A stretch of 28,124 nucleotides of DNA, taken from a virus. The stretch is taken from positions 1 to 28,124 of the IMG/VR virus record IMGVR_UViG_3300027747_003130. One strand, given 5' to 3'. Both the position numbers and the translations under genes were made by a program. The notes beneath the pieces are model-generated. The model was not told the DNA's origin and did not search any database. It saw nothing but the letters and a program-made list of their open reading frames with translations. The number at the start of each line of letters is the position of its first letter. Position 1 is the first letter of the stretch. Positions 3,277 to 20,744 of the stretch are shown here, in pieces.

Positions 3277-3996
3277 TCATTTTGCTCGCCAAGGTAGTCC
3301 ATTGGGATAACGCTGATTCATGATACTGTTGCCCTTGATGAAAAAATCTGCGGTCACGGATTGTGGATTGCCATCCAATCTGTAGCATGCTGTGGTATAG
3401 CCTGTGCAACCAAAATCCTGTACATGCTGAGCTATAGCAGAATAAAAGCGTCGATCTCCACCCCAACCGCTATACCAGGCAGGGGCCATGCCTATCATAA
3501 CATCTTTGCGTATACAATAGGTAGACGTATCAACTAAATGATGCTGGTCGCTGAGATAGATCGGCCAACGCCCAAGGCTTTCGCAATCATCATCGCAGAT
3601 CCACCTACCCTGAGCATCGTGTATTTTGCGAAGGCTGTGACACCAACGCCAATTGTTGGCTTCGCAGGCAGAGATCATTTTAGTTACATGATCGGGCTCA
3701 AACCAATTGTCTTGATCCAACGCCAGCCAATAATCTTGTTCTATCAACGGCGCTGAGAGAAAATATATTCTGTGTCCATACCAGCCATTTCTGCCTGTGT
3801 TCCATGGCAGGGTCATGTGTTTTACAGAAGGAAACTGCCGTAGTATGCTCAGTGCTGCTGATTCAAATTCTGGCCCATCGATGATGACCAAACAGGTGGT
3901 ATTGGTATGTGTTTGAGTGGTTGCACTGGCCACAGCATCGGCTAGGGTTTTGGCTCCTGTAGTCGGTATTACAATTATTGCGGATTTGTCATGCAT
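3277..3996 (-). CDS. GT2-like glycosyltransferase
   Basis: The 239-residue protein opens with a Rossmann-type strand and the family-2 theme 'SATTQTHTNTTCLVIIDG'. Near residue 95 it has ALDQDNWFEPDHV, the DxD-like donor/metal site. A Trp/Gly-rich stretch (YSGWGGDRRFY) fits the catalytic loop region. Its ATG overlaps the end of tilS by 8 bases, so the two are probably co-translated. The substrate is not evident. It is probably related in mode to the GT-A gene at 14729-15421, which has the same architecture. Confidence 0.78.
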   Translation of the reverse strand: MHDKSAIIVIPTTGAKTLADAVASATTQTHTNTTCLVIIDGPEFESAALSILRQFPSVKHMTLPWNTGRNGWYGHRIYFLSAPLIEQDYWLALDQDNWFEPDHVTKMISACEANNWRWCHSLRKIHDAQGRWICDDDCESLGRWPIYLSDQHHLVDTSTYCIRKDVMIGMAPAWYSGWGGDRRFYSAIAQHVQDFGCTGYTTACYRLDGNPQSVTADFFIKGNSIMNQRYPNGLPWRAK

Positions 3997-4975
3997 GCAC
4001 TAGTTTATTGTCTGCAGCCGTCGGCGTCAAACGTTCGACAAAGATTCTCTTGCCTATCTTGCGAATACGTAGATTTTTGGTCAGTAGTTGGTTGCGATTG
4101 TCTAGATTTGCAGTGACCAGACCATTGGCAAACTGTTCAACCTGCCCTGCACTAAACGTATATACTCCCTCTAGTTCTAAAATCCTCAACACCATGTTTT
4201 TAATGCGGAGATAGCCTAGGTCTCTCACTCGATACCAATCCAGCACATTTGGTTTGGCAGTGACACGTGACAGATCCTGATCAGCTAAAATTCTAGTTAA
4301 TTGCCAAGCCTCTTCGATATGAGCTACACTGCGCAGGACGTTGACATCTGCTACACCAAAACGATCAGTAATGACCGGCCAGATCTTGTTTCTTATGTAG
4401 TTTCTGTCGTAACTGTTGTCTCGATTGCTGGGGTCTTGCACAGCAGTGATATTGTGTTCTTCGGCCCATAGTTCGATCTGCGGCCGAGTGACTTCCAACA
4501 TTGGTCTAAGCACCGTCACAGATTCGTCATACCAGCAGGGCACAGCAGGTAACATGCTTTTCAAACCGCGTATGCCGCTGCCTCGGAAAAGTTTCAAGAA
4601 AAAACTTTCGCATTGATCATTAGCATGATGTGCTAGAACAATGCTGTCGGCACGTGATTCGCAAAAGGCTTGGTATCTAGCCTTGCGTGCGGCGTATTCA
4701 AGATTATTACCAAGACCATCGAGGCTGACTTTTACTGTGATAAGATCAATCGACAAATCCCTACAGCGATCCTCAACAAAGTGTGCCCATGTGTCACTGA
4801 GCGCATTGATCCCATGATTCACATGTATGGCTTTGACTTCAAACGGAAATTCTGAACGATTTTTGGCAAACCATGTCAACATACACATGCTGTCTATGCC
4901 ACCGCTGATGCCCAGCAGGCACTGCCTGCTGTTGGCAAATAATTTTAACACTTTGTCCTTGCACAACAGGTCCAT
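3989..4975 (-). CDS. tilS: tRNA(Ile)-lysidine synthetase
   Basis: TilS changes C34 of tRNA-Ile(CAU) to lysidine so that the tRNA reads AUA and is charged with Ile. The start is set at the ATG at 4975 because AGAGGA stands 6 bases upstream; in-frame GTG (5068) and ATG (5056) codons lack a ribosome site. The 328-residue protein has the PP-loop SGGIDS at about residues 24-29, then AHHANDQCESFFLKLFRGSG and DPSNRDNSYDRNYIRNKIWP, all diagnostic for TilS. A C-terminal region of about 110 residues follows. TilS is rarely seen in phages. Its presence suggests AUA-rich messages or a phage tRNA-Ile2 elsewhere; none is visible here. It sits between Nudix and glycosyltransferase genes. Confidence 0.92.
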   Translation of the reverse strand: MDLLCKDKVLKLFANSRQCLLGISGGIDSMCMLTWFAKNRSEFPFEVKAIHVNHGINALSDTWAHFVEDRCRDLSIDLITVKVSLDGLGNNLEYAARKARYQAFCESRADSIVLAHHANDQCESFFLKLFRGSGIRGLKSMLPAVPCWYDESVTVLRPMLEVTRPQIELWAEEHNITAVQDPSNRDNSYDRNYIRNKIWPVITDRFGVADVNVLRSVAHIEEAWQLTRILADQDLSRVTAKPNVLDWYRVRDLGYLRIKNMVLRILELEGVYTFSAGQVEQFANGLVTANLDNRNQLLTKNLRIRKIGKRIFVERLTPTAADNKLVHA

Positions 4976-5076
4976 AAAATATCCTCTAGGTCCGCATACA
5001 CTAACACCATCTACTGTTATGTCAATGGTTTTAGACGGGTTGCATATCGCTACCATGGTAGCGTTCACAATTGGGA

Positions 5077-7196: not shown

Positions 7197-7970
7197 CTAG
7201 TTTTGTCCTGCCTGATTTCCGGACATTGTTGTGTCAGCAGTCTCACCACTCAGTGCTACCCAGGCTTTGCGATCATCTGCGCGACTTGCATTGAAAATCA
7301 AATCAAGGGCTTCTGACAGTGCTCCGTCGTCTGTCAGGGGGATTAATCGTGGATTAGAAAGACTGTGTATCCAATCAATTTCTTCTAGACTGCCCAAACC
7401 CTTGGCACGAGTTGGTTTTGGAGCCCCTTTCCAATCATCTGCATTGTAGAGATGATAGTCATCGGCATACCAGTAGGTTCTTTTCTTACCCTTTTCCTGT
7501 ATGATGAACGGTGTCTGGAACACATAAAATACCGGAGGGAGTTTTGGGTCAAACAATTCTGGCCAATGTAGATAGAAAAAATTGACCAACAGTGCAGTAA
7601 TATTGGCTCCGTCGGGATCTTGATCTGCTGCTAGATAGACACTGCCATACCGCATGTCTCGCCGATTGGCAGGTTGGCCTAGACCAACGCCCAGTGAAGT
7701 CATGATATCGCTGATGATTTGGTTTTCAATAATGGTCTTTGGCAACTCTCCTCTGACATTGAGGATTTTGCCACGCAGTGGCAGAGCACCATGGATTTCG
7801 GGATGGCGAACGGCGGCCACCATGCTTTTTGCGCTATTATGACTTAGCAGTCCGTTTGATAATACAAATGTTTCGTCATCCATAACTTGTATATCATACA
7901 TGTTTGTTTTCCCTATAGGAGAGATATCTATTATATCTTCCATTAAAAACAAACTTTCATTTATATTCAT
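7197..7970 (-). CDS. 39: Topoisomerase II large subunit, C-terminal piece with split C-intein
   Basis: Residues 1-45 are a C-intein: block F-like YDIQVMDDETFVLSNG and block G ending LLSHN. The C-extein begins at Ser46 (SAKSMVAAV), completing the TOPRIM motif EGD|S that ends the upstream gene. The extein continues with ILNVRGELPKT and LAADQDPDGANI, whose DxD motif binds Mg2+. The ATG at 7970 has AAGG about 7 bases upstream, so this is a separately translated protein. It must be joined to the N-terminal piece by protein trans-splicing to rebuild the active centre. The gp39-like enzyme relaxes or manages supercoils during phage replication together with gp52. Confidence 0.9.
   Translation of the reverse strand: MNINESLFLMEDIIDISPIGKTNMYDIQVMDDETFVLSNGLLSHNSAKSMVAAVRHPEIHGALPLRGKILNVRGELPKTIIENQIISDIMTSLGVGLGQPANRRDMRYGSVYLAADQDPDGANITALLVNFFYLHWPELFDPKLPPVFYVFQTPFIIQEKGKKRTYWYADDYHLYNADDWKGAPKPTRAKGLGSLEEIDWIHSLSNPRLIPLTDDGALSEALDLIFNASRADDRKAWVALSGETADTTMSGNQAGQN
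7836..7970 (-). other. Split intein, C-terminal half (IntC, 45 residues)
   Basis: The 45 residues run from the start Met to Asn45, followed by Ser46 (+1). Block F and the penultimate His-Asn of block G are present, so Asn cyclisation and Ser-type splicing chemistry look intact. The partner is the N-intein at 8059-8574. Confidence 0.88.
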
Positions 7971-8055: not shown

Positions 8056-9870
8056 CTACAAATTATGTGCCATTAGTAAATGGATATCAATGTCTAGATT
8101 TTTAGCAGCTACCTTTTCAATGGTCGCAGTGCATTTATTTAAAACAGAGAATAAATGATTTTCGGACGTTATACAGGTTTGATTAATTATACCATTTGTA
8201 AAAGAAATTGATTTATTAAATTTTCCATCATCATAATCATTTACAGCGACGATTTCAAAAAATGTAGACTCCATATCAATTATAGAGGAAAACAGTTTAT
8301 GTTTAGACTTGTCTAAATCTTTGCCTTTTACAATTTCATATTGGTTAAGTTGTGTGTTATAAACAGGTATTTTATGCTCAAGACTTATTTTTAATGTTTT
8401 TCCAGATGATGTTGTAATAGCAATTCCGTCTGTTATTTTTGCCTGTTTATTACATACCGGTTTAATTCTGCCTTTATGCGTTAAAACTAAATCACCTATT
8501 TGGATGTCTTTAATTTTTTTGCTACAAAATCTTCCATCTTCAAATATTGCGATAGCTGTATCTTCTGCTAGACAATCACCCTCGCATATCAACAGTATAC
8601 ATTTGCTTCTATCCTTGCCGTTGGCATCTAGAAGTTTTGGGACCTTGTTGCGCAGCAGTTTGCGATTGGCCTTGGCAATATCTGCATCATCGCGTTTTTG
8701 AGTACGTGCTGCACAGCGAGCATAGATCTCATCCAACCACTCCTTATGAGTACGTAGGATGTTTTTGAATGTGTTTTCATCTTCTAAACTGGCTTTGATC
8801 CAACGATCTACCTCGTCATTGATCAAGCGTGTTTTGCTTTGACTGTCAAAGTTTGGAGCATGCATCACAGTGGTGTTGTAAATCAATAGACCTTCTGATA
8901 TATCACTGCGGTTTGGAGTCAGTCCTCGACGCTTGCTTTCACGTTCCATGGCTTTTAGCATGCCACTGAAAAACAACCTTTTAAACACATCAATGTGTTG
9001 GCCGCCATTGAATGCAGGTATATCGTTAACTGTACTGTGCACAAATTCGCCTTCGGAGCCAAATCCCGGAATCAAGTAGTAATTGCTGTGAAACTTTTCT
9101 TCCTGTATGCTGATGATCACGGGATTATTGTTGGCAAACATAGTCTTGTCGAGGCTTTTGGCCACTACGACTCTGTCACCATTGAAACTAAAGCGTATTT
9201 TAGGATGATTGGCAGCTACTTCAAATACCCTGGCCTTGACAAACGACAACGGTATCTTGGCCTTGGGAAAAACCACCGAACTGAGAGTGAAATTGATTTC
9301 AGTTCCCGATTTCATAGTACTGTTGAAGATACGCGGCTCACCAATGTTGAGATCTGGCATGAGTTCTGTACATTCTTTAAATTCCTGTTGGAATCGTTTG
9401 CCATCTCGTTTGATGTCGATGGTGAATGAACGCGAACAACTGACAACTACAGAAGAACCAACACCGTTGGTACCACGCACTTCTTCACGTGTGCCAAAAT
9501 TCCTGCCAACACGAGCCTGCGTCAGTGCCAAGGTAGCCTTGTGCATTTTTTCATTTTCATCCCAGTCAATTGGAATACCACGGCCATCATCTGACACACC
9601 AAATGTCAAAGTACTGGGATCGTAGGTGATATCAATGCGAGATCCATGTCCATGACCGACAACTTCATCCAGAGCATTGTCAAATATCTCTCGAAAGGCA
9701 GAATATGCGGCCGGCGTCCAAGCAACTTCTTCTGCAATCAGCTGACTACCATTCCAATTTATGACTGTTTGACTGTGAATATTGCGGCTGCCTAGATACA
9801 TTTCCGTCCGCAAGCGATGATGGTCGTAGTCGGTTAATTTAACAATTTCTTCGCTTGATTTTTTAGCCAT
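8056..9870 (-). CDS. 39: Topoisomerase II large subunit, N-terminal piece with split N-intein
   Basis: The start is the ATG at 9870 with GGGA upstream; an earlier TTG is unlikely. The protein has 604 residues. The N-terminal GHKL ATPase shows DNALDEVV, DDGRGIPI and GTNGVGSSVV. The transducer domain follows. The extein stops at CILLICEGD, exactly inside the TOPRIM EGDS motif. The last 172 residues form an N-intein starting CLAEDTAIAIF. The missing TOPRIM remainder is on the next gene. The stop is TAG at 8056, followed by a 40-base hairpin. A sigma70 promoter (9901-9928) and an upstream terminator (9936-9966) make this the first gene of its transcription unit. Confidence 0.92.
   Translation of the reverse strand: MAKKSSEEIVKLTDYDHHRLRTEMYLGSRNIHSQTVINWNGSQLIAEEVAWTPAAYSAFREIFDNALDEVVGHGHGSRIDITYDPSTLTFGVSDDGRGIPIDWDENEKMHKATLALTQARVGRNFGTREEVRGTNGVGSSVVVSCSRSFTIDIKRDGKRFQQEFKECTELMPDLNIGEPRIFNSTMKSGTEINFTLSSVVFPKAKIPLSFVKARVFEVAANHPKIRFSFNGDRVVVAKSLDKTMFANNNPVIISIQEEKFHSNYYLIPGFGSEGEFVHSTVNDIPAFNGGQHIDVFKRLFFSGMLKAMERESKRRGLTPNRSDISEGLLIYNTTVMHAPNFDSQSKTRLINDEVDRWIKASLEDENTFKNILRTHKEWLDEIYARCAARTQKRDDADIAKANRKLLRNKVPKLLDANGKDRSKCILLICEGDCLAEDTAIAIFEDGRFCSKKIKDIQIGDLVLTHKGRIKPVCNKQAKITDGIAITTSSGKTLKISLEHKIPVYNTQLNQYEIVKGKDLDKSKHKLFSSIIDMESTFFEIVAVNDYDDGKFNKSISFTNGIINQTCITSENHLFSVLNKCTATIEKVAAKNLDIDIHLLMAHNL
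8059..8574 (-). other. Split intein, N-terminal half (IntN, 172 residues)
   Basis: Cys1 follows EGD. Block A is CLAEDTAIAIF and a block B-like stretch is LEHKIPVYN at about residues 65-73. Usual split N-inteins are about 100 residues. Here about 65 more follow, with a second block B-like TSENHLF and a KVAAKNLDIDIHLL stretch resembling a Hint strand pair. The extra part may be a duplicated Hint segment or a remnant of an insert. It ends MAHNL just before the stop. Confidence 0.85.
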
Positions 9871-9900
9871 TATGATTCCCAACTGTGTATCGACATGACT

Positions 9901-14728: not shown

Positions 14729-15421
14729 CTATCTTGTTGTCTCAGCATGTGTATATGTATGCAAATTCCCATTCTGTTGAGCAATCCAAACACTGTCTGC
14801 AGGTGGAATCAGTCCAGCATGTTGATAGTGCCAAGCCCATCTTGAATGATAGTTTACACTGGGTATTTTACAATGTACTCGTGACAGATTGGCCTGCAAT
14901 ATACTGTGCCAAAATTTCCTATCGCTCCATAACCGCAGTGATGGTTCGGTGATCCAGTTTACAAGACAATGCATGCTTGGCGCTGTCAGAAAAAGACAGT
15001 TGGTATCGCAAAAATCTTCGCCAGTGCTTTCTATTGTGTCGATATAAAGAGCAGTCCCGAGTCTGGTACATATTGTTCGTGTAGCTGTTGCAACTGCTTG
15101 AGAACCAATAGTTTTTACCATCAATTCTAGGTGATTTGGTTCATAGGTGTTGTCAGCATCTAAAAATGCCACAGCATCATAGCCTTGGCTGAATGCTGAT
15201 ATAGCAGCCAATGCTCTGGGAGTAGCACCGGCATCAGCATGGCAGCAAGGTAATACCATGTGGTCAACATCGGGCCATTTGCTCACTATGGGATGGGGGT
15301 TGCCATCTGCCACCATGATGTGTCTATAATCTGCATGTGTCTGTGCTGACACGCTGAGCCTGCAGCGTGTCAGCACATCGGAAGTTTCATGCCAATACGG
15401 CGTGATAACTGCAATTTTCAC
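14729..15421 (-). CDS. GT2-like glycosyltransferase
   Basis: The GTG start overlaps the nrdB stop (GTGA) with no ribosome site, so it depends on coupling. The 230-residue protein has KIAVITPYW, then SVSAQTHADYRHIMVADG, and the metal/donor motif AFLDADNTYEPNHL near residue 90, typical of family-2 GT-A enzymes. It is short and has no membrane segment. The substrate is unknown. Its association with nrdB and glutaredoxin may only reflect compact phage gene order. Confidence 0.82.
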   Translation of the reverse strand: MKIAVITPYWHETSDVLTRCRLSVSAQTHADYRHIMVADGNPHPIVSKWPDVDHMVLPCCHADAGATPRALAAISAFSQGYDAVAFLDADNTYEPNHLELMVKTIGSQAVATATRTICTRLGTALYIDTIESTGEDFCDTNCLFLTAPSMHCLVNWITEPSLRLWSDRKFWHSILQANLSRVHCKIPSVNYHSRWAWHYQHAGLIPPADSVWIAQQNGNLHTYTHAETTR

Positions 15422-16518
15422 AGGATGGGCAATTCGTTGTAACTGATGTCTGTACTGAGCACACCAATAACATAGTTGGTTGATTCAGTTTCCTGCAGTG
15501 CTGATTGCTTCTTGCTGGGATTACTGTGCTTGTTGAACCAAGGTATCGGAGTGCTGCGTGGCGCTGTGCCTTGGTATTTTATGCCTATGTCCTTCAATGC
15601 TGCTGCACTGGTGAAATCAACAAAATCTTTCAAAATATTAGCATTGAGTCCGATCACAGGGCCTTTGCTGAACAGATAGTCGGCCCAGGCTTTTTCCTCG
15701 GCTACTACGCTGGCATACATAGCGTACACTTCAGTTTGGCAGCGAATTTTGGCCTGGGCGAAACGCGCATCTTCTTTGACAACTTGATTGATGATGAATG
15801 CAGTCCAGTCCTTGTGCAGCATCTCATCCTGTAGGATAAGGCTGATGATGTTGCCGTTGCCAATAAAGATCTTGTTCTCAACCATGGCTAGGCTGGTGGC
15901 AAAACTGACCATGAAGCGAAACGCTTCCAGTGCATAACTGGCATTGAGTGCTAGCCAAATGGCATCGATGTGCTCTTGCTCGTGGATCTCCTGTCCAAGT
16001 TCCTTGCGGCAGTTGATAATGTGCAGAGCATTGTAGTATTCACCGATGTCGGCGGCCATGCTGATAATCTCACTGACGTCGTGGATGGTGTTGAATACGT
16101 CTTTGGGAACATTATAGATGTTTTGTATGATGTGACTGTAGGATTTGCTGTGAATATTGGTTTCAAACGCACTCCAGATTGACACTAGAGATTCCATTTC
16201 CGGTAGGCTTACCACTGGGCTGAATACCTGTACCGGGGCACGGCCCTGTAGGCTATCCAGTGCTGTTTGTCGCAATAGATTGCTGGTGAATATATGTTTG
16301 ACCGCATCACTGGCATTCTTGAAATCATTAGCATCCTTGGTAAGATTGATCTCTTCTGGCACCCAGAAAAATCCACGCTGCTCCTGTTCATATTTGGCAA
16401 CACGCGGATAACGAAATTCCTCAAAGCGCTGGACAGTTACCGGACCAGCAGGATCCAAGAACATCTTGCGTGTGAGATAGTCAGTTTTGGTAGATAAATC
16501 ATATTGTGCTTTTGACAT
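15418..16518 (-). CDS. nrdB: Class Ia ribonucleotide reductase beta subunit
   Basis: The small subunit holds the di-iron/tyrosyl radical cofactor that starts catalysis in NrdA. Recognisable residues in the 366-residue protein are D88 (TALDSLQGR), E119 and H123 (FETNIHSKSY), radical Tyr Y127, E198 (ALEAFRF), and E232/H235 (QDEMLH). In E. coli the Glu and His of helix B are three apart (ETIH). Here four positions separate E119 and H123, a one-residue insertion worth checking. It is the only unbroken large reductase gene in the cluster, immediately downstream of the three nrdA pieces. Confidence 0.93.
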   Translation of the reverse strand: MSKAQYDLSTKTDYLTRKMFLDPAGPVTVQRFEEFRYPRVAKYEQEQRGFFWVPEEINLTKDANDFKNASDAVKHIFTSNLLRQTALDSLQGRAPVQVFSPVVSLPEMESLVSIWSAFETNIHSKSYSHIIQNIYNVPKDVFNTIHDVSEIISMAADIGEYYNALHIINCRKELGQEIHEQEHIDAIWLALNASYALEAFRFMVSFATSLAMVENKIFIGNGNIISLILQDEMLHKDWTAFIINQVVKEDARFAQAKIRCQTEVYAMYASVVAEEKAWADYLFSKGPVIGLNANILKDFVDFTSAAALKDIGIKYQGTAPRSTPIPWFNKHSNPSKKQSALQETESTNYVIGVLSTDISYNELPIL

Positions 16519-16608: not shown

Positions 16609-17625
16609 CTATAATTTACACGACTCACATCCAGACTCATCATCAAAGTCAATTGGTTCTAGCATAGCAGGTGCTTCTCCAGCGTCGGCTTTTGATCCTT
16701 GTTTATTCACTAGTGAGTAGTATATGGTCTTGAGGCCCCACAAATGCGCTTGCATCAAGTTCTTAGCAACCAATGTCGCCGGCACTTTACGATCTGCGAA
16801 ATGAGCAGGATTATAAAAAGTATTGGTACTAATGCTTTGATCAACATAAGCTGCCAAAACCGCAGCGGTTTTGAGATATCCGTCGCAGTCCTTTTGATCC
16901 CACATTAGTTGATACTTGTTTTTAAGTTTAGTGTACTCTGGTACAACTTGTGTGAGTGATCCTGCTTTGCTTTCCTTTGTGCTGATCAAGCTCATAGGTA
17001 ATTCAATTCCATTAGTGCTGTTTATAACAACACTACTGCTTTCAACTGGAGCAATGGCCATTACTGTTGCATTGCGGACTCCATACTGTCTCATATTAGT
17101 ACGGAGTGTTTCCCAATCAAGTTCTGGTGTAAAGTCTGCTAAGTCATTAACAGCCTTGGCTCTTAATTCCCAAGGAAATATTCCTTGCCCATATCGTGTT
17201 TTTTCACTATCGATGCATGCACCGCGCTCTCGGGCTAATTCAACAGTAGCCTCTGTCAGGTAAAACGCTTGATGTTCCATCCATGTCTTGACATCCTGGA
17301 GTGCGTCCTTTTCTCCATACTTTAGGTTACGCTTGGCATGCCAGTAGGCTAAATTGGTTATACCAATACCTAGTGGGCTGATTTCATCGTTAGATAATTT
17401 ACTCTGGATTGATAGGAAGTCTTGATAATCTAAGATATTGCATAGGCTACGCTGTAGAATACGGCAAGCACGACGCATGTCTTCAGGATTACGGAAGGCT
17501 CCCCAGTTGATACTACCAAGCGTACACAAACTAATCCTCGCGGCATCTTCATCCACCTCATAATATTCATATTCATCATCCAGTTCTTCGGGTAGATATT
17601 CTATTTCTTCATATAATTCAATCAT
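16609..17625 (-). CDS. nrdA: Ribonucleotide reductase alpha, C-terminal piece (NrdA piece 3)
   Basis: GGAG lies 7 bases before this ATG, so it is a separately translated protein of 338 residues. The first 27 residues contain 14 Asp/Glu and no Lys/Arg; NrdA homology begins at about residue 29 with RISLCTLGSINWG. Visible active residues are C34 (E. coli C462), Y302-Y303 (radical-transfer Y730-Y731) and the C-terminal redox pair C333/C336 in CESCKL. No intein motif is at its start. It must assemble with piece 2, whose C-terminus ends in a Lys-rich tail. It lies upstream of nrdB. Confidence 0.92.
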   Translation of the reverse strand: MIELYEEIEYLPEELDDEYEYYEVDEDAARISLCTLGSINWGAFRNPEDMRRACRILQRSLCNILDYQDFLSIQSKLSNDEISPLGIGITNLAYWHAKRNLKYGEKDALQDVKTWMEHQAFYLTEATVELARERGACIDSEKTRYGQGIFPWELRAKAVNDLADFTPELDWETLRTNMRQYGVRNATVMAIAPVESSSVVINSTNGIELPMSLISTKESKAGSLTQVVPEYTKLKNKYQLMWDQKDCDGYLKTAAVLAAYVDQSISTNTFYNPAHFADRKVPATLVAKNLMQAHLWGLKTIYYSLVNKQGSKADAGEAPAMLEPIDFDDESGCESCKL

Positions 17626-17670
17626 TCTTCAACTCCAAAATGTGTTAAAATATTTCCACCAATCCACTAA

Positions 17671-18651
17671 CTATTTCAGTTTCTTCAGTTTAACAAATTG
17701 CTCTGGTTTGTTTAGTAAAAAGTCACTTGCTACTTCTTTTTTAACCTTAATAAACTTCTTCTTTGTAGTACCCATTGCAACAGTTGGCAACAAAATCTCC
17801 AAACAAAGATTACTTTGATAAATGGTGTGGAAGTTGGGATCAAATGGACCTTGATTCTGTACGTTGTCGATAAACACAAGATAAATGCGTCCAGTATCTG
17901 TGCGCTCTTTTAATATGCCGCCTTTGAATACATCTTCAGCTGCCATTGTTTTAGTACGTAAGTCTTTACGCTTTTCATATTTTACATACAGTTTTTCAAA
18001 AGCGGCGATATCTTTATAAAATGCTTCGTACAAGTCAGGTACTTCATTTGGATCAAAGAATGTTATATTTTCTTTGTTTTTAAATCTCCTCCAGAAGAAG
18101 GCAGAAAGTACCACTCCGTAGTCCATATGTCGTACCCTAGTTTCTTCTGTGCCTTGGTTATTCTTAAGAACAATAAGATCATCAAACTGAAGATGCCAAA
18201 TTGGATAAAATACAGTAGCACTTGCGTTCCGGATCCCTCCTTGGCTGTTGTGAGTCAAGACCATAGGACCATGGCTGCTATTCGAAGCAAAAAATGTATG
18301 GGTGTCGTCTACTGTAATATCAATGTATCTGGTGTCGTTTTGCTGTTCAAAATCTGCAACCAGCAAGCGAGTAAATCCATTTTCAGTAAGAACGCGATCT
18401 TCATTTGTAAGATCCGTTGGCTTCTTTTGCAAGAACGATCCCGACTCATGTAGCACCATAATAGGGTGATTCACTGAGCAATTCAATGTCACACCATTTT
18501 CAAATTCTAATCGAACTTGGTCGTGTTGATTTACAGTAGTATCCCATTTATTAGTTACTGTTTTAAACACTATTTCGCCGTTCTCATTTTTAGTTTTAAT
18601 TTTCATACCTGCGGTTAGATCTTTAATTTGAATCTTTTTAGTTTTTACCAT
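17671..18651 (-). CDS. nrdA: Split C-intein fused to the middle piece of NrdA (NrdA piece 2)
   Basis: Residues 1-135 are the C-intein. The extein starts at Ser136 (SQGGIRNASATVFYPIWH), continuing NrdA exactly where piece 1 stops. Active-site residues N281, C283 and E285 (SNLCLEILLP) match E. coli N437, C439, E441. After P289 the family would run on to C462. Instead there are 37 extra residues rich in Lys (11 Lys, 3 acidic), then TAG. The ATG overlaps the end of the endonuclease-like gene by 14 bases, so translation is probably coupled. After trans-splicing, pieces 1+2 would form one chain ending in this basic tail. Confidence 0.92.
   Translation of the reverse strand: MVKTKKIQIKDLTAGMKIKTKNENGEIVFKTVTNKWDTTVNQHDQVRLEFENGVTLNCSVNHPIMVLHESGSFLQKKPTDLTNEDRVLTENGFTRLLVADFEQQNDTRYIDITVDDTHTFFASNSSHGPMVLTHNSQGGIRNASATVFYPIWHLQFDDLIVLKNNQGTEETRVRHMDYGVVLSAFFWRRFKNKENITFFDPNEVPDLYEAFYKDIAAFEKLYVKYEKRKDLRTKTMAAEDVFKGGILKERTDTGRIYLVFIDNVQNQGPFDPNFHTIYQSNLCLEILLPTVAMGTTKKKFIKVKKEVASDFLLNKPEQFVKLKKLK
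18247..18651 (-). other. Split intein, C-terminal part (IntC, 135 residues)
   Basis: It holds almost the whole Hint fold: a strand pair (KDLTAGMKIKTKNENGE), block B NHPIMVL with the usual His, block F YIDITVDDTHTFFASN, and block G ending in VLTHN before Ser +1. The start, MVKTKKIQIK, is basic, opposite to the acidic 19-residue N-part. It contains no endonuclease domain. Confidence 0.9.
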
Positions 18652-19732
18652 TTTCGTGTTCTTCTCTTGTTAAAGTTTTGATATCAGTAAACCTATCGGA
18701 CATCTCAAATTGACTGACTTTTAATACCGTTTTACCTCTAGTTGTTTTGTAGTATTCATTCATTAGATCTTTTGATTTAAAAAACTTACCATCTACTTTA
18801 TAGAAAACCTTAGTACTTAAATTGGCGTAGTTGGTAGAATTTGTCTCATATTCTTCCTTGCTTATTGTGACAACTTTTCTTTCAGCAATGGAATATACTA
18901 CAATATTTCCGGTATTATGATGTTTATATACATTTTTATCATATTTTTCTTTTGCTACTAGTTTCTTTTCTCCGGTGTCTCTGTCTATAACCGGAACTAA
19001 CCCAAATGTATTACCAACATATCTGCCATTTGAGTTGTTGAATTCATTCTGTGACACCAATTTTTTACATTTATTAACAGTATCATATGCCGCTACTTTC
19101 CCTTTAGTAATGCCGACAAAATTAGGGTTAGACCTAAAAGTAGTCTTTGGGATTCTGAAAGTTTTTCCAGTAGTTGTGTCTAATGCCAGAACGTAATCGT
19201 TAAATTCAGTCAATTGAGTATTAGGATCAAAGTCTGTGGTATATATTTTTTTAATACCTGTTACTGTGCGTATATTCATCATACCTTTCGTAACGTGCTG
19301 ATGTTTTCCTGTAGCGAATTCTTCTACCGTTACTCGATAAGTATTGCCACAGTTGTCTTTGCATAACACAGAACCCGCCCCACAGTTTGATCCCCCTGCT
19401 GTAAGAGAATTTAAAAAATCAGGATTCTTACCAACTTGATGCTTTTGATGGAATATTTTTTCTGCTGCGAATGCATCGCTTCTAGTTTTAAAGTATTCAA
19501 CTCTATATTCAAACAAATCTGGGAATTTTTTTAGTTTTTCCTTAAAATCAATCACTGTTGAACTGGTAAAATACTTTATTAACAAATCGTGCATACCACT
19601 ACCTTCAACTCCGCGAGAACCAGAGTAAAACTTTCCTGTTTCCGTGTCTTTAATTGTATAGCAATAATAAGCAGAGTTCATTAGCATATTAGTTTGTGAT
19701 CCATTATATGATTCTTGTAGATAATTTAGCAT
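18638..19732 (-). CDS. GIY-YIG-like putative homing endonuclease with C-terminal repeats
   Basis: GGAGG 8 bases before the ATG at 19732 fixes the start; the in-frame ATG at 19747 overlaps this site. The 364-residue protein has an N-terminal YYCYTIKDTETGKFYSGSRG (about residues 22-41), a divergent GIY-YIG pattern, and a later Glu in AEKIFHQKH. From about residue 150 on, a motif of roughly 40-45 residues with 'V-x-A-x-D-x-x-T-G-K' and '(E/K)-x-(F/Y)' recurs several times, probably a DNA-recognition array. It sits between the intein halves of nrdA, the classic place for a homing gene. Nuclease activity is inferred. Confidence 0.78.
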   Translation of the reverse strand: MLNYLQESYNGSQTNMLMNSAYYCYTIKDTETGKFYSGSRGVEGSGMHDLLIKYFTSSTVIDFKEKLKKFPDLFEYRVEYFKTRSDAFAAEKIFHQKHQVGKNPDFLNSLTAGGSNCGAGSVLCKDNCGNTYRVTVEEFATGKHQHVTKGMMNIRTVTGIKKIYTTDFDPNTQLTEFNDYVLALDTTTGKTFRIPKTTFRSNPNFVGITKGKVAAYDTVNKCKKLVSQNEFNNSNGRYVGNTFGLVPVIDRDTGEKKLVAKEKYDKNVYKHHNTGNIVVYSIAERKVVTISKEEYETNSTNYANLSTKVFYKVDGKFFKSKDLMNEYYKTTRGKTVLKVSQFEMSDRFTDIKTLTREEHENGKN

Positions 19733-19749
19733 TTCGTATACCTCCATAT

Positions 19750-19775: not shown

Positions 19776-20744
19776 TCATTTATCTATAGAATTATCCTCA
19801 TCTAAAACCTCTACCCAGGTATCTGGGGTAACACAGCAACTGCGCAGATCACCAAACCATTTTTTCAAGAAAGGTATCATACCAGTATGCATGATTTCGC
19901 CACCGCGAATTGAGGAGCCCAATGGGCGCAGTCGACCTATTTCCAATCCGATCCCAGCACGTTTACTGGCATACTTGGCCATCATCTCGCCAGAAGCAAA
20001 GATACTATCCAAATTGTCGTCACTGCGGATTAGCACACAACTAGAAAACTGTTTAGTTGGAGTGCCAAGGCCAGCCAACACAGGTGTAGCAAGAGTAAAC
20101 AAACCATCTGATGCAGCATTGTAGTATTCTTTGATATAGCGCATTCTCGCCGTATTTGGTTCTTCTCTATGGAAAACAGTAGCAGCGGCTACAATGTAGC
20201 GAATCTGCGGAGTTTCATAGATCTTATTGGTTGCCCTGTTGCGAACAAGATATTTTTCAATCATCTGTTCAATAGCAGCAAAACTGTATTGCTCGTCCTT
20301 TTCATGATCCAGCATCTCGTTCATCTTGTGCCAATCATCGTCTGAGTACCATTCCAGCAGTTCTGGAGTATAGAGACCTACCTCTACATTGCGTTTGACG
20401 ATTGACAAGAGATCCGGTACCTCATAGGAACCATAAACATCCTTGCGCAGCATTGACAGGCGTTGTTTACCAGCAACATATTGATAATTTGTATGGCCAA
20501 TCACCGGGTTGATCTCAATGTCGATCAAATCAACTATGGCCCGCAGTGTGATACTATCGATTTCGGTAGTGGTGATATTGTTATAAAAATGTAACTGTGC
20601 TTTGATTTCGATCATAGACTGGCTGACATCTGCTACATTTTTACAAATCTTAGCGATTTGCTGTTGCCATTTTTCGATGTTCAATAGTTCTTGGTGTCCG
20701 TCTCTCTTGGTGACGAAAATATCACCCTGTTTTTGAGTTGTCAT
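19776..20744 (-). CDS. nrdA: Ribonucleotide reductase alpha, N-terminal piece with split N-intein (NrdA piece 1)
   Basis: AGAGGA lies 6 bases before the ATG. Residues about 8-95 are the ATP-cone allosteric domain (FVTKRDGHQELLNIEKW). The catalytic barrel begins with TPTKQFSSCVLI, where C236 equals E. coli redox Cys225. The extein ends at FGDLRSC303; Cys304 begins the intein part CVTPDTWVEVLDEDNSIDK, only 19 residues, then TGA. Intact NrdA proteins read SC-SQGG here, so the junction with Ser136 of piece 2 is exact. It needs trans-splicing with the C-intein encoded over 1.1 kb downstream. Its function is reduction of ribonucleoside diphosphates with NrdB. Confidence 0.93.
   Translation of the reverse strand: MTTQKQGDIFVTKRDGHQELLNIEKWQQQIAKICKNVADVSQSMIEIKAQLHFYNNITTTEIDSITLRAIVDLIDIEINPVIGHTNYQYVAGKQRLSMLRKDVYGSYEVPDLLSIVKRNVEVGLYTPELLEWYSDDDWHKMNEMLDHEKDEQYSFAAIEQMIEKYLVRNRATNKIYETPQIRYIVAAATVFHREEPNTARMRYIKEYYNAASDGLFTLATPVLAGLGTPTKQFSSCVLIRSDDNLDSIFASGEMMAKYASKRAGIGLEIGRLRPLGSSIRGGEIMHTGMIPFLKKWFGDLRSCCVTPDTWVEVLDEDNSIDK
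19779..19835 (-). other. Split intein, very short N-terminal part (IntN, 19 residues)
   Basis: Only block A (CVTPDTWVEV) and an acidic tail are present before the stop. Ordinary split inteins break near the endonuclease site, at about residue 100. This is the 'atypical' split type, known from a few phage-derived inteins such as AceL-TerL and VidaL. Cys1 is present, so splicing chemistry is possible. Confidence 0.9.

What the first reader, a model, noticed from the sequence alone, without database searches (positions are those of the whole stretch)
16609..18651. Second, intein-free break in nrdA with basic and acidic docking tails
NrdA is cut again between the E. coli C439-E441 segment (piece 2) and C462 (piece 3), so the active site is shared by two polypeptides. 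Piece 2 ends in 37 extra residues with 11 Lys and 3 acids. Piece 3 starts with 27 residues holding 14 Asp/Glu and no Lys/Arg. Opposite charges at exactly the two new ends suggest an evolved electrostatic clamp that replaces covalent continuity. Phage Aeh1 NrdA-a/NrdA-b is a known precedent for a working reductase in pieces, but I know of none combining this with a split intein.
Basis: partly seen in the sequence, partly recalled or inferred. Interest (0 to 1): 0.92.

Follow-up and report, generated by a model that had tools for sequence, protein, structure and literature searches.

The report
Tail-docked split phage ribonucleotide reductase
A phage's DNA-building-block enzyme is cut in two at its active site by the scar of a DNA-cutting parasite gene, and the two cut ends carry conserved, oppositely charged tails that probably clip the halves together, as shown for phage Aeh1; here the tails prove to be widespread, mobile, and evolved in at least two unrelated versions.

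Summary
The second nrdA break falls between E. coli R1 residues 450 and 451, parting C439/E441 from C462. A Lys-rich C-tail and a Lys/Arg-free acidic N-tail flank it. About 50 uncultured-phage contigs share this break and both tails; none of 57 loci that span it lacks one tail. Intact relatives have only a 9-10-residue loop there. Most split relatives carry a homing-endonuclease gene in the gap. The window's 45-nt gap looks like a deletion scar of such an insert. So the break is a homing-endonuclease split, as in phage Aeh1, whose NrdA-a C-tail is homologous (best of 2,001 against shuffles). The tails are under purifying selection. They move as a cassette: tail DNA is 98-100% identical where nrdA is 71-81%, a C-tail sits on a 45%-identical NrdA, and split/intact state changes at least 10 times on the tree. 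AlphaFold2 gives the window's tails a local beta-alpha-beta plus beta fold. A docking role is likely but unproven; charge as the driver is untested. A second, unrelated tail pair of reversed polarity occupies the same loop in 41 contigs.

The parts
19776..20744 (-). NrdA piece 1: ATP cone, all-alpha domain and start of the barrel, with the C225 equivalent (SSCVLI); ends in a very short split-intein N half (about 19 aa, CVTPDTWVEVLDEDNSIDK, 19779-19835)
   Evidence: Pfam PF03477, PF00317, PF02867; motif positions
18638..19747 (-). 369-aa ORF inside the split intein, probable homing endonuclease (GIY-YIG-like by eye only)
   Evidence: no Pfam or PHROG match; homologues in the same place in L132 and L172
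17671..18651 (-). NrdA piece 2: split-intein C half (about 18247-18651), NrdA middle with NLCLE (C439/E441) and the C-tail
17674..17781 (-). C-tail, 36 aa, basic; predicted beta-alpha-beta
   Evidence: composition; homologous tails in about 50 contigs; dN/dS about 0.11; AF2 E155-163, H164-172, E178-183
17626..17670 (-). 45-nt intergenic gap; its 3' end (ACACATTTTGGAGTTGAAGA) matches the end of a cargo ORF (...KHFGVEE*) found in the gaps of L179, L175 and L186; probable scar of a deleted homing-endonuclease insert; holds GGAG ahead of the piece 3 ATG
   Evidence: gap ORFs
17545..17625 (-). N-tail, 27 aa, 14 D/E, no K/R; predicted strand at EYEYYEVDE
   Evidence: dN/dS about 0.06; AF2 E220-228
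16609..17625 (-). NrdA piece 3: N-tail plus barrel remainder, with C462 (SLCTL), the YY radical-path pair and the C-terminal CESC
   Evidence: PF02867; phmmer to E. coli R1 451-756
15418..16518 (-). NrdB, small subunit
   Evidence: PF00268

Best explanation
A homing-endonuclease cassette entered the surface loop between the C439/E441 and C462 strands of nrdA. Its unit was C-tail with stop, then HEG with cargo ORFs, then start with N-tail. It cut the gene into two translated pieces. In the window lineage the endonuclease was later deleted and the tails stayed. The spliced product of pieces 1 and 2, which ends in the basic beta-alpha-beta C-tail, is proposed to associate with piece 3 through its acidic N-tail strand. 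The two tails would form a small joint beta-sheet that holds the two barrel halves together, so that C225/C439/E441 and C462 make one active site, as in Aeh1 NrdA-a/NrdA-b. Shown here: the break, the paired tails, selection on them, their mobility, HEGs in relatives, and the homology of the Aeh1 C-tail. Inferred: docking, joint sheet, enzyme activity, and the deletion in the window lineage (a short scar).
For: Same-loop split with both tails in about 50 contigs, and no one-tailed locus among the 57 that span it. HEGs in most gaps; L003 has PF01541 E=4.8e-6 and phrog_314 E=3.9e-32. L205 retains the last codons of the HEG (Y*ITKYGKRI*) as its gap, a clear deletion scar; the window gap ends in a cargo-ORF remnant. 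C-tail DNA is 98-100% identical to L162/163/165/168 while core DNA is 80-81% (P2) and 71-75% (P3), and a run identical to L168 reaches from just after the E441 codon to the stop codon. L205 carries the C-tail at 89% aa on an NrdA that is 45-47% identical. Split/intact needs at least 10 changes on starred branches. dN/dS is 0.11 for the C-tail and 0.06 for the N-tail. The Aeh1 C-tail is rank 1 of 2,001 against shuffles, 15.1 against at most 10.7 bits, and the MobE C-terminal domain is homologous to the gap HEGs (E=1e-20). AF2 gives ordered tails. Aeh1 split NrdA is fully functional (PMC2988022).
Against: No contact between the tails was seen: the AF2 tool gives no coordinates, and the model is partial (pTM 0.64, TM about 0.45 to E. 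coli R1, rmsd about 21 A; piece 1 is missing), with a short artificial tether. A second model with a long linker left the tails disordered, but its alignment gave them no homologues. The Aeh1 N-tail is not significantly similar to the N-tail family (rank 114). The window scar match is only about 20 nt and includes the ribosome-binding site.
Confidence: 0.82

Rival explanations
1. The tails are unselected read-out of inserted DNA up to the next stop and start, with no docking role; the barrel halves associate through their own large interface.
For: Barrel halves share a large interface. AF2 pairing of the tails was not directly seen.
Against: dN/dS of about 0.11 and 0.06; invariant residues across about 50 contigs; both tails always present; a similar function probably served by a second, unrelated tail pair.
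Confidence: 0.12
2. The tails serve the mobile element, for example as conserved DNA for homing-site recognition or immunity or regulation of HEG translation, rather than the enzyme.
For: They travel with HEGs.
Against: Conservation is at the amino-acid level with near-saturated synonymous sites (pS 0.74 and 0.68). Tails are kept after HEG loss in the window, L173, L174 and L205.
Confidence: 0.06
3. Pieces 2 and 3 are rejoined by stop readthrough, frameshift, intron splicing or a cryptic intein.
For: The window gap is in frame, TAG then TGA.
Against: Spacing and frame vary (10 to 1,635 nt, in and out of frame), and TAG and TAA are both used. No Rfam intron. No intein match in these tails. Every one of 57 N-tails has a purine-rich ribosome-binding-like site.
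Confidence: 0.03
4. nrdA is a decaying pseudogene.
For: It is interrupted twice.
Against: All catalytic residues are kept, the core pN/pS is 0.14-0.22 over 29 split loci, and an intact nrdB lies next door.
Confidence: 0.03

Closest known systems
Aeromonas phage Aeh1 NrdA-a / MobE / NrdA-b
   Same: Class Ia NrdA split in the same loop between the C439/E441 and C462 equivalents, by a homing endonuclease; basic C-tail homologous to this one (FKVKKSEVDKF against IRVKKSNVDEF); acidic N-tail. Reported functional (PMC2988022). From memory, Friedrich 2007 and Crona 2011 showed assembly and need for the tails.
   Different: Aeh1 keeps an HNH MobE in the gap; the window gap is empty and its relatives mostly hold GIY-YIG enzymes. 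The window also has a split intein upstream. The Aeh1 N-tail is not significantly alike by profile.
Fractured genes with split inteins (Dassa 2009, cited in PMC3653736)
   Same: The first nrdA break here, and the one in the topoisomerase gene, are split inteins; that in nrdA surrounds an endonuclease-like ORF.
   Different: The second break has no intein and is not spliced.
Type II split at the same loop (L214-L254, L062, L132)
   Same: Same nrdA loop, HEG in the gap, complementary charged tails.
   Different: Unrelated tails with reversed polarity: an acidic 52-aa C-tail weakly like the middle of an intein, and a short basic N-tail MKIIKKECTREVP.
T4 gp39/gp60 topoisomerase and phage 25 gp43A/B
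   Same: Essential phage genes in pieces, associated with HEG insertion (PMC2988022).
   Different: Different genes; no homologous tails were examined.

Membership tests
Aeh1-type genes-in-pieces NrdA | nrdA split between the C439/E441 and C462 equivalents | tested here: met
   E. coli R1 450|451 boundary; Aeh1 splits in the same loop
Aeh1-type genes-in-pieces NrdA | homing endonuclease gene in the gap | tested here: not met
   Window gap is 45 nt without a gene; met in most relatives, with a probable deletion scar here and a clear one in L205
Aeh1-type genes-in-pieces NrdA | homologous C-tail | tested here: met
   Aeh1 tail 15.1 bits, best of 2,001 against shuffles
Aeh1-type genes-in-pieces NrdA | homologous N-tail | tested here: inconclusive
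   Acidic in both, but profile rank 114 against about 2,000 shuffles
Aeh1-type genes-in-pieces NrdA | pieces copurify and are active; tails required | not testable with these tools
   Needs biochemistry
Split intein at the second break | intein N and C halves flanking the break, with Cys/Ser and HN-nucleophile junctions | tested here: not met
   No intein family match in the type I tails and no HN junction at the start of piece 3
Group I intron | intron RNA in the gap | tested here: not met
   No Rfam match at E<=1

The most novel reading that the evidence does not exclude
Docking tails are portable parts of HEG insertion cassettes: protein clips that make insertion into an essential active site harmless. 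They move between distant NrdA enzymes, outlive the endonuclease, and have arisen at least twice in unrelated, oppositely charged forms at one loop, one of them possibly made from intein fragments.
Probability: 0.5. Interest if true: 0.78.

Novelty: new variant of a known kind. Interest (0 to 1): 0.62.

Why it matters
Aeh1 was a single case of a selfish insertion into an enzyme active site made harmless by new protein tails. Here there are about 50 natural relatives at every stage: intact, HEG-bearing, HEG-deleted, and transferred to a distant NrdA. There is also a second, unrelated solution at the same loop. Together they let one test whether the docking tails belong to the mobile element and how split essential genes become fixed. 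The tails are also candidate orthogonal pairs for assembling split proteins without splicing.

Tried and rejected
1) AlphaFold2 on L186 read through a 200-residue junk linker: the tails came out disordered, but I had not checked the alignment first and it gave them no homologues, so the result is uninformative. 2) The N-tail profile does not single out the Aeh1 N-tail. 3) An HEG C-terminal motif as source of the C-tail looked tempting by eye; the profile gives MobE -1 bit, so it is not claimed. 4) No PDB chain resembles the C-tail. 5) The N-tail search of GTDB genomes and the tail searches of isolate phages found no relative; only Aeh1 itself matches the Aeh1 tails. 6) Readthrough, frameshift and intron explanations rejected. 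7) Friedrich 2007, Crona 2011 and Dassa 2009 are not held; statements on them rest on memory or on citing papers.

Full report
What is there. The window is an uncultured phage contig. Its class Ia nrdA is in three pieces on the minus strand: 19776-20744, 17671-18651 and 16609-17625, followed by nrdB. The first break is a split intein around a 369-aa ORF. The second break, the finding, is intein-free. phmmer maps the extein part of piece 2 to E. coli R1 301-450 and piece 3 to 451-756, so the cut parts C439/E441 from C462. The catalytic motifs are present: SSC in piece 1, NLCLE in piece 2, and SLCTL, YY and CESC in piece 3.

Tails. The C-tail has 36 residues (11 K, 3 acids); the N-tail has 27 (14 acids, no K/R). 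Intact relatives, over 100 of them and up to 94% identical over the piece 2 core, have only 9-10 residues in this loop (LLPTKSFKRLDDAEGRIALCTL). So both tails are additions.

Relatives. Searches with the pieces and with the tails found 49 contigs in IMG/VR with the same split and homologous tails, not counting the window's own record (my tally over). Of the loci, 57 span both ends and every one has both tails (some contigs are represented by more than one locus); the apparent one-tailed loci are cut by contig ends, or in L172 displaced by an extra intein. The N-tail was not found in GTDB genomes, and neither tail was found in isolate phages. Every N-tail start has a purine-rich ribosome-binding-like site. 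Pooled dN/dS is about 0.11 for the C-tail and 0.06 for the N-tail, so both are selected as proteins.

What made the break. In most relatives the gap holds a homing endonuclease of one of at least three kinds: GIY-YIG 'MNYSGFIYEW', GIY-YIG 'MKKYIVYCHTL', and 'MTFTPTWLM' with an HNH-enzyme-like C-terminal part. Some also carry small cargo ORFs. In L205 the gap is the last codons of the first kind of HEG, plainly a deletion scar. In the window the gap ends in what looks like the last codons of a cargo ORF that ends ...KHFGVEE* in L179, L175 and L186. The window is therefore most likely an insertion that has lost its endonuclease.

Mobility. The window's C-tail DNA is 98-100% identical, and its N-tail DNA 91-94%, to L162, L163, L165 and L168, while the adjoining core DNA is only 80-81% (piece 2) and 71-75% (piece 3). 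With L168 the identical run goes from just after the E441 codon to the stop codon. L205 bears the C-tail (89% of residues) on an NrdA only 45-47% identical. On a tree of 141 cores, split/intact needs 15 changes, at least 10 forced by starred branches, and the window's sister is intact (L010). The tree is a quick one, with long branches for Aeh1 and L205.

Aeh1. I fetched it. Its NrdA-a ends VPMGKKEKMLFKVKKSEVDKFKLMVATDQYKSLRY in the same loop. A profile of the C-tails here ranks it first against 2,000 shuffles (15.1 against at most 10.7 bits). Its N-tail is acidic too, but profile similarity is not significant. MobE shares its C-terminal domain with the gap HEGs (E=1e-20). Aeh1 split NrdA is reported fully functional (PMC2988022). 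From memory, Crona et al. 2011 found the tails essential; that paper is not held.

Structure. AlphaFold2 on the window's pieces 2 and 3, read through the in-frame gap with a checked alignment, gives C-tail strand 155-163, helix 164-172, strand 178-183, and N-tail strand 220-228, with block pLDDT of about 60-83 in the tails against 27 in the linker. The strands alternate charged and hydrophobic residues, which would suit a joint sheet. I could not see which strands pair, the tether is artificial, and the barrel is incomplete (TM about 0.45 to E. coli R1). An earlier model without aligned tails is uninformative.

A second solution. The same loop is split in 41 further contigs with unrelated tails: an acidic 52-aa C-tail (net -3 to -8, weakly like the middle of an intein, E=0.008) and a short basic N-tail MKIIKKECTREVP. 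Their gaps hold HNH or GIY-YIG enzymes, one of the same family as in the first type (L226). No mixing of the two tail types was seen. Reversed polarity in an independent pair favours charge complementarity as a real feature, but does not prove it.

Verdict. The mechanism, docking tails, is likely and has a homologous biochemical precedent. The origin is a homing-endonuclease insertion whose tails travel with it. This is a new variant of a known kind, with unusually rich comparative material.

Noticed in passing
L214-L254, L062, L132: A second, unrelated tail pair (acidic intein-middle-like C-tail, basic MKIIKKECTREVP N-tail) splits nrdA at the same loop in 41 contigs.
   Followed up: partly
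window 7197-7970 and 8056-9882: The topoisomerase large subunit gene is also fractured by a split intein (starts CLAEDTAIAIFEDG, ends LLSHN before SAKSM).
   Followed up: no
window 19779-19835 and 18247-18651: The nrdA split intein has an unusually short N half (about 19 aa) and a C half of about 135 aa.
   Followed up: no
window 18638-19747: The 369-aa ORF within the split intein has no Pfam or PHROG match; its start looks GIY-YIG-like by eye, and it overlaps the next ORF by 14 nt.
   Followed up: partly
L172 1990-3396; L132 about 4244-4700: An additional intein sits at the C439 codon (NLC|CLTGETEI...), so some nrdA genes carry up to three different interruptions.
   Followed up: partly
L226 gap and L003 6612-7379: The same GIY-YIG endonuclease family sits between both unrelated tail pairs, so endonucleases and tails are exchanged separately.
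   Followed up: partly
L002 1376-1759, L113 5424-5810, L082 1189-1392: Small conserved cargo ORFs of unknown function ride in the gap cassettes; no Pfam or PHROG match.
   Followed up: partly
window 3989-5068: ORF with a SGGIDSM motif, like tRNA-Ile lysidine synthetase (TilS), in a phage; by eye only.
   Followed up: no
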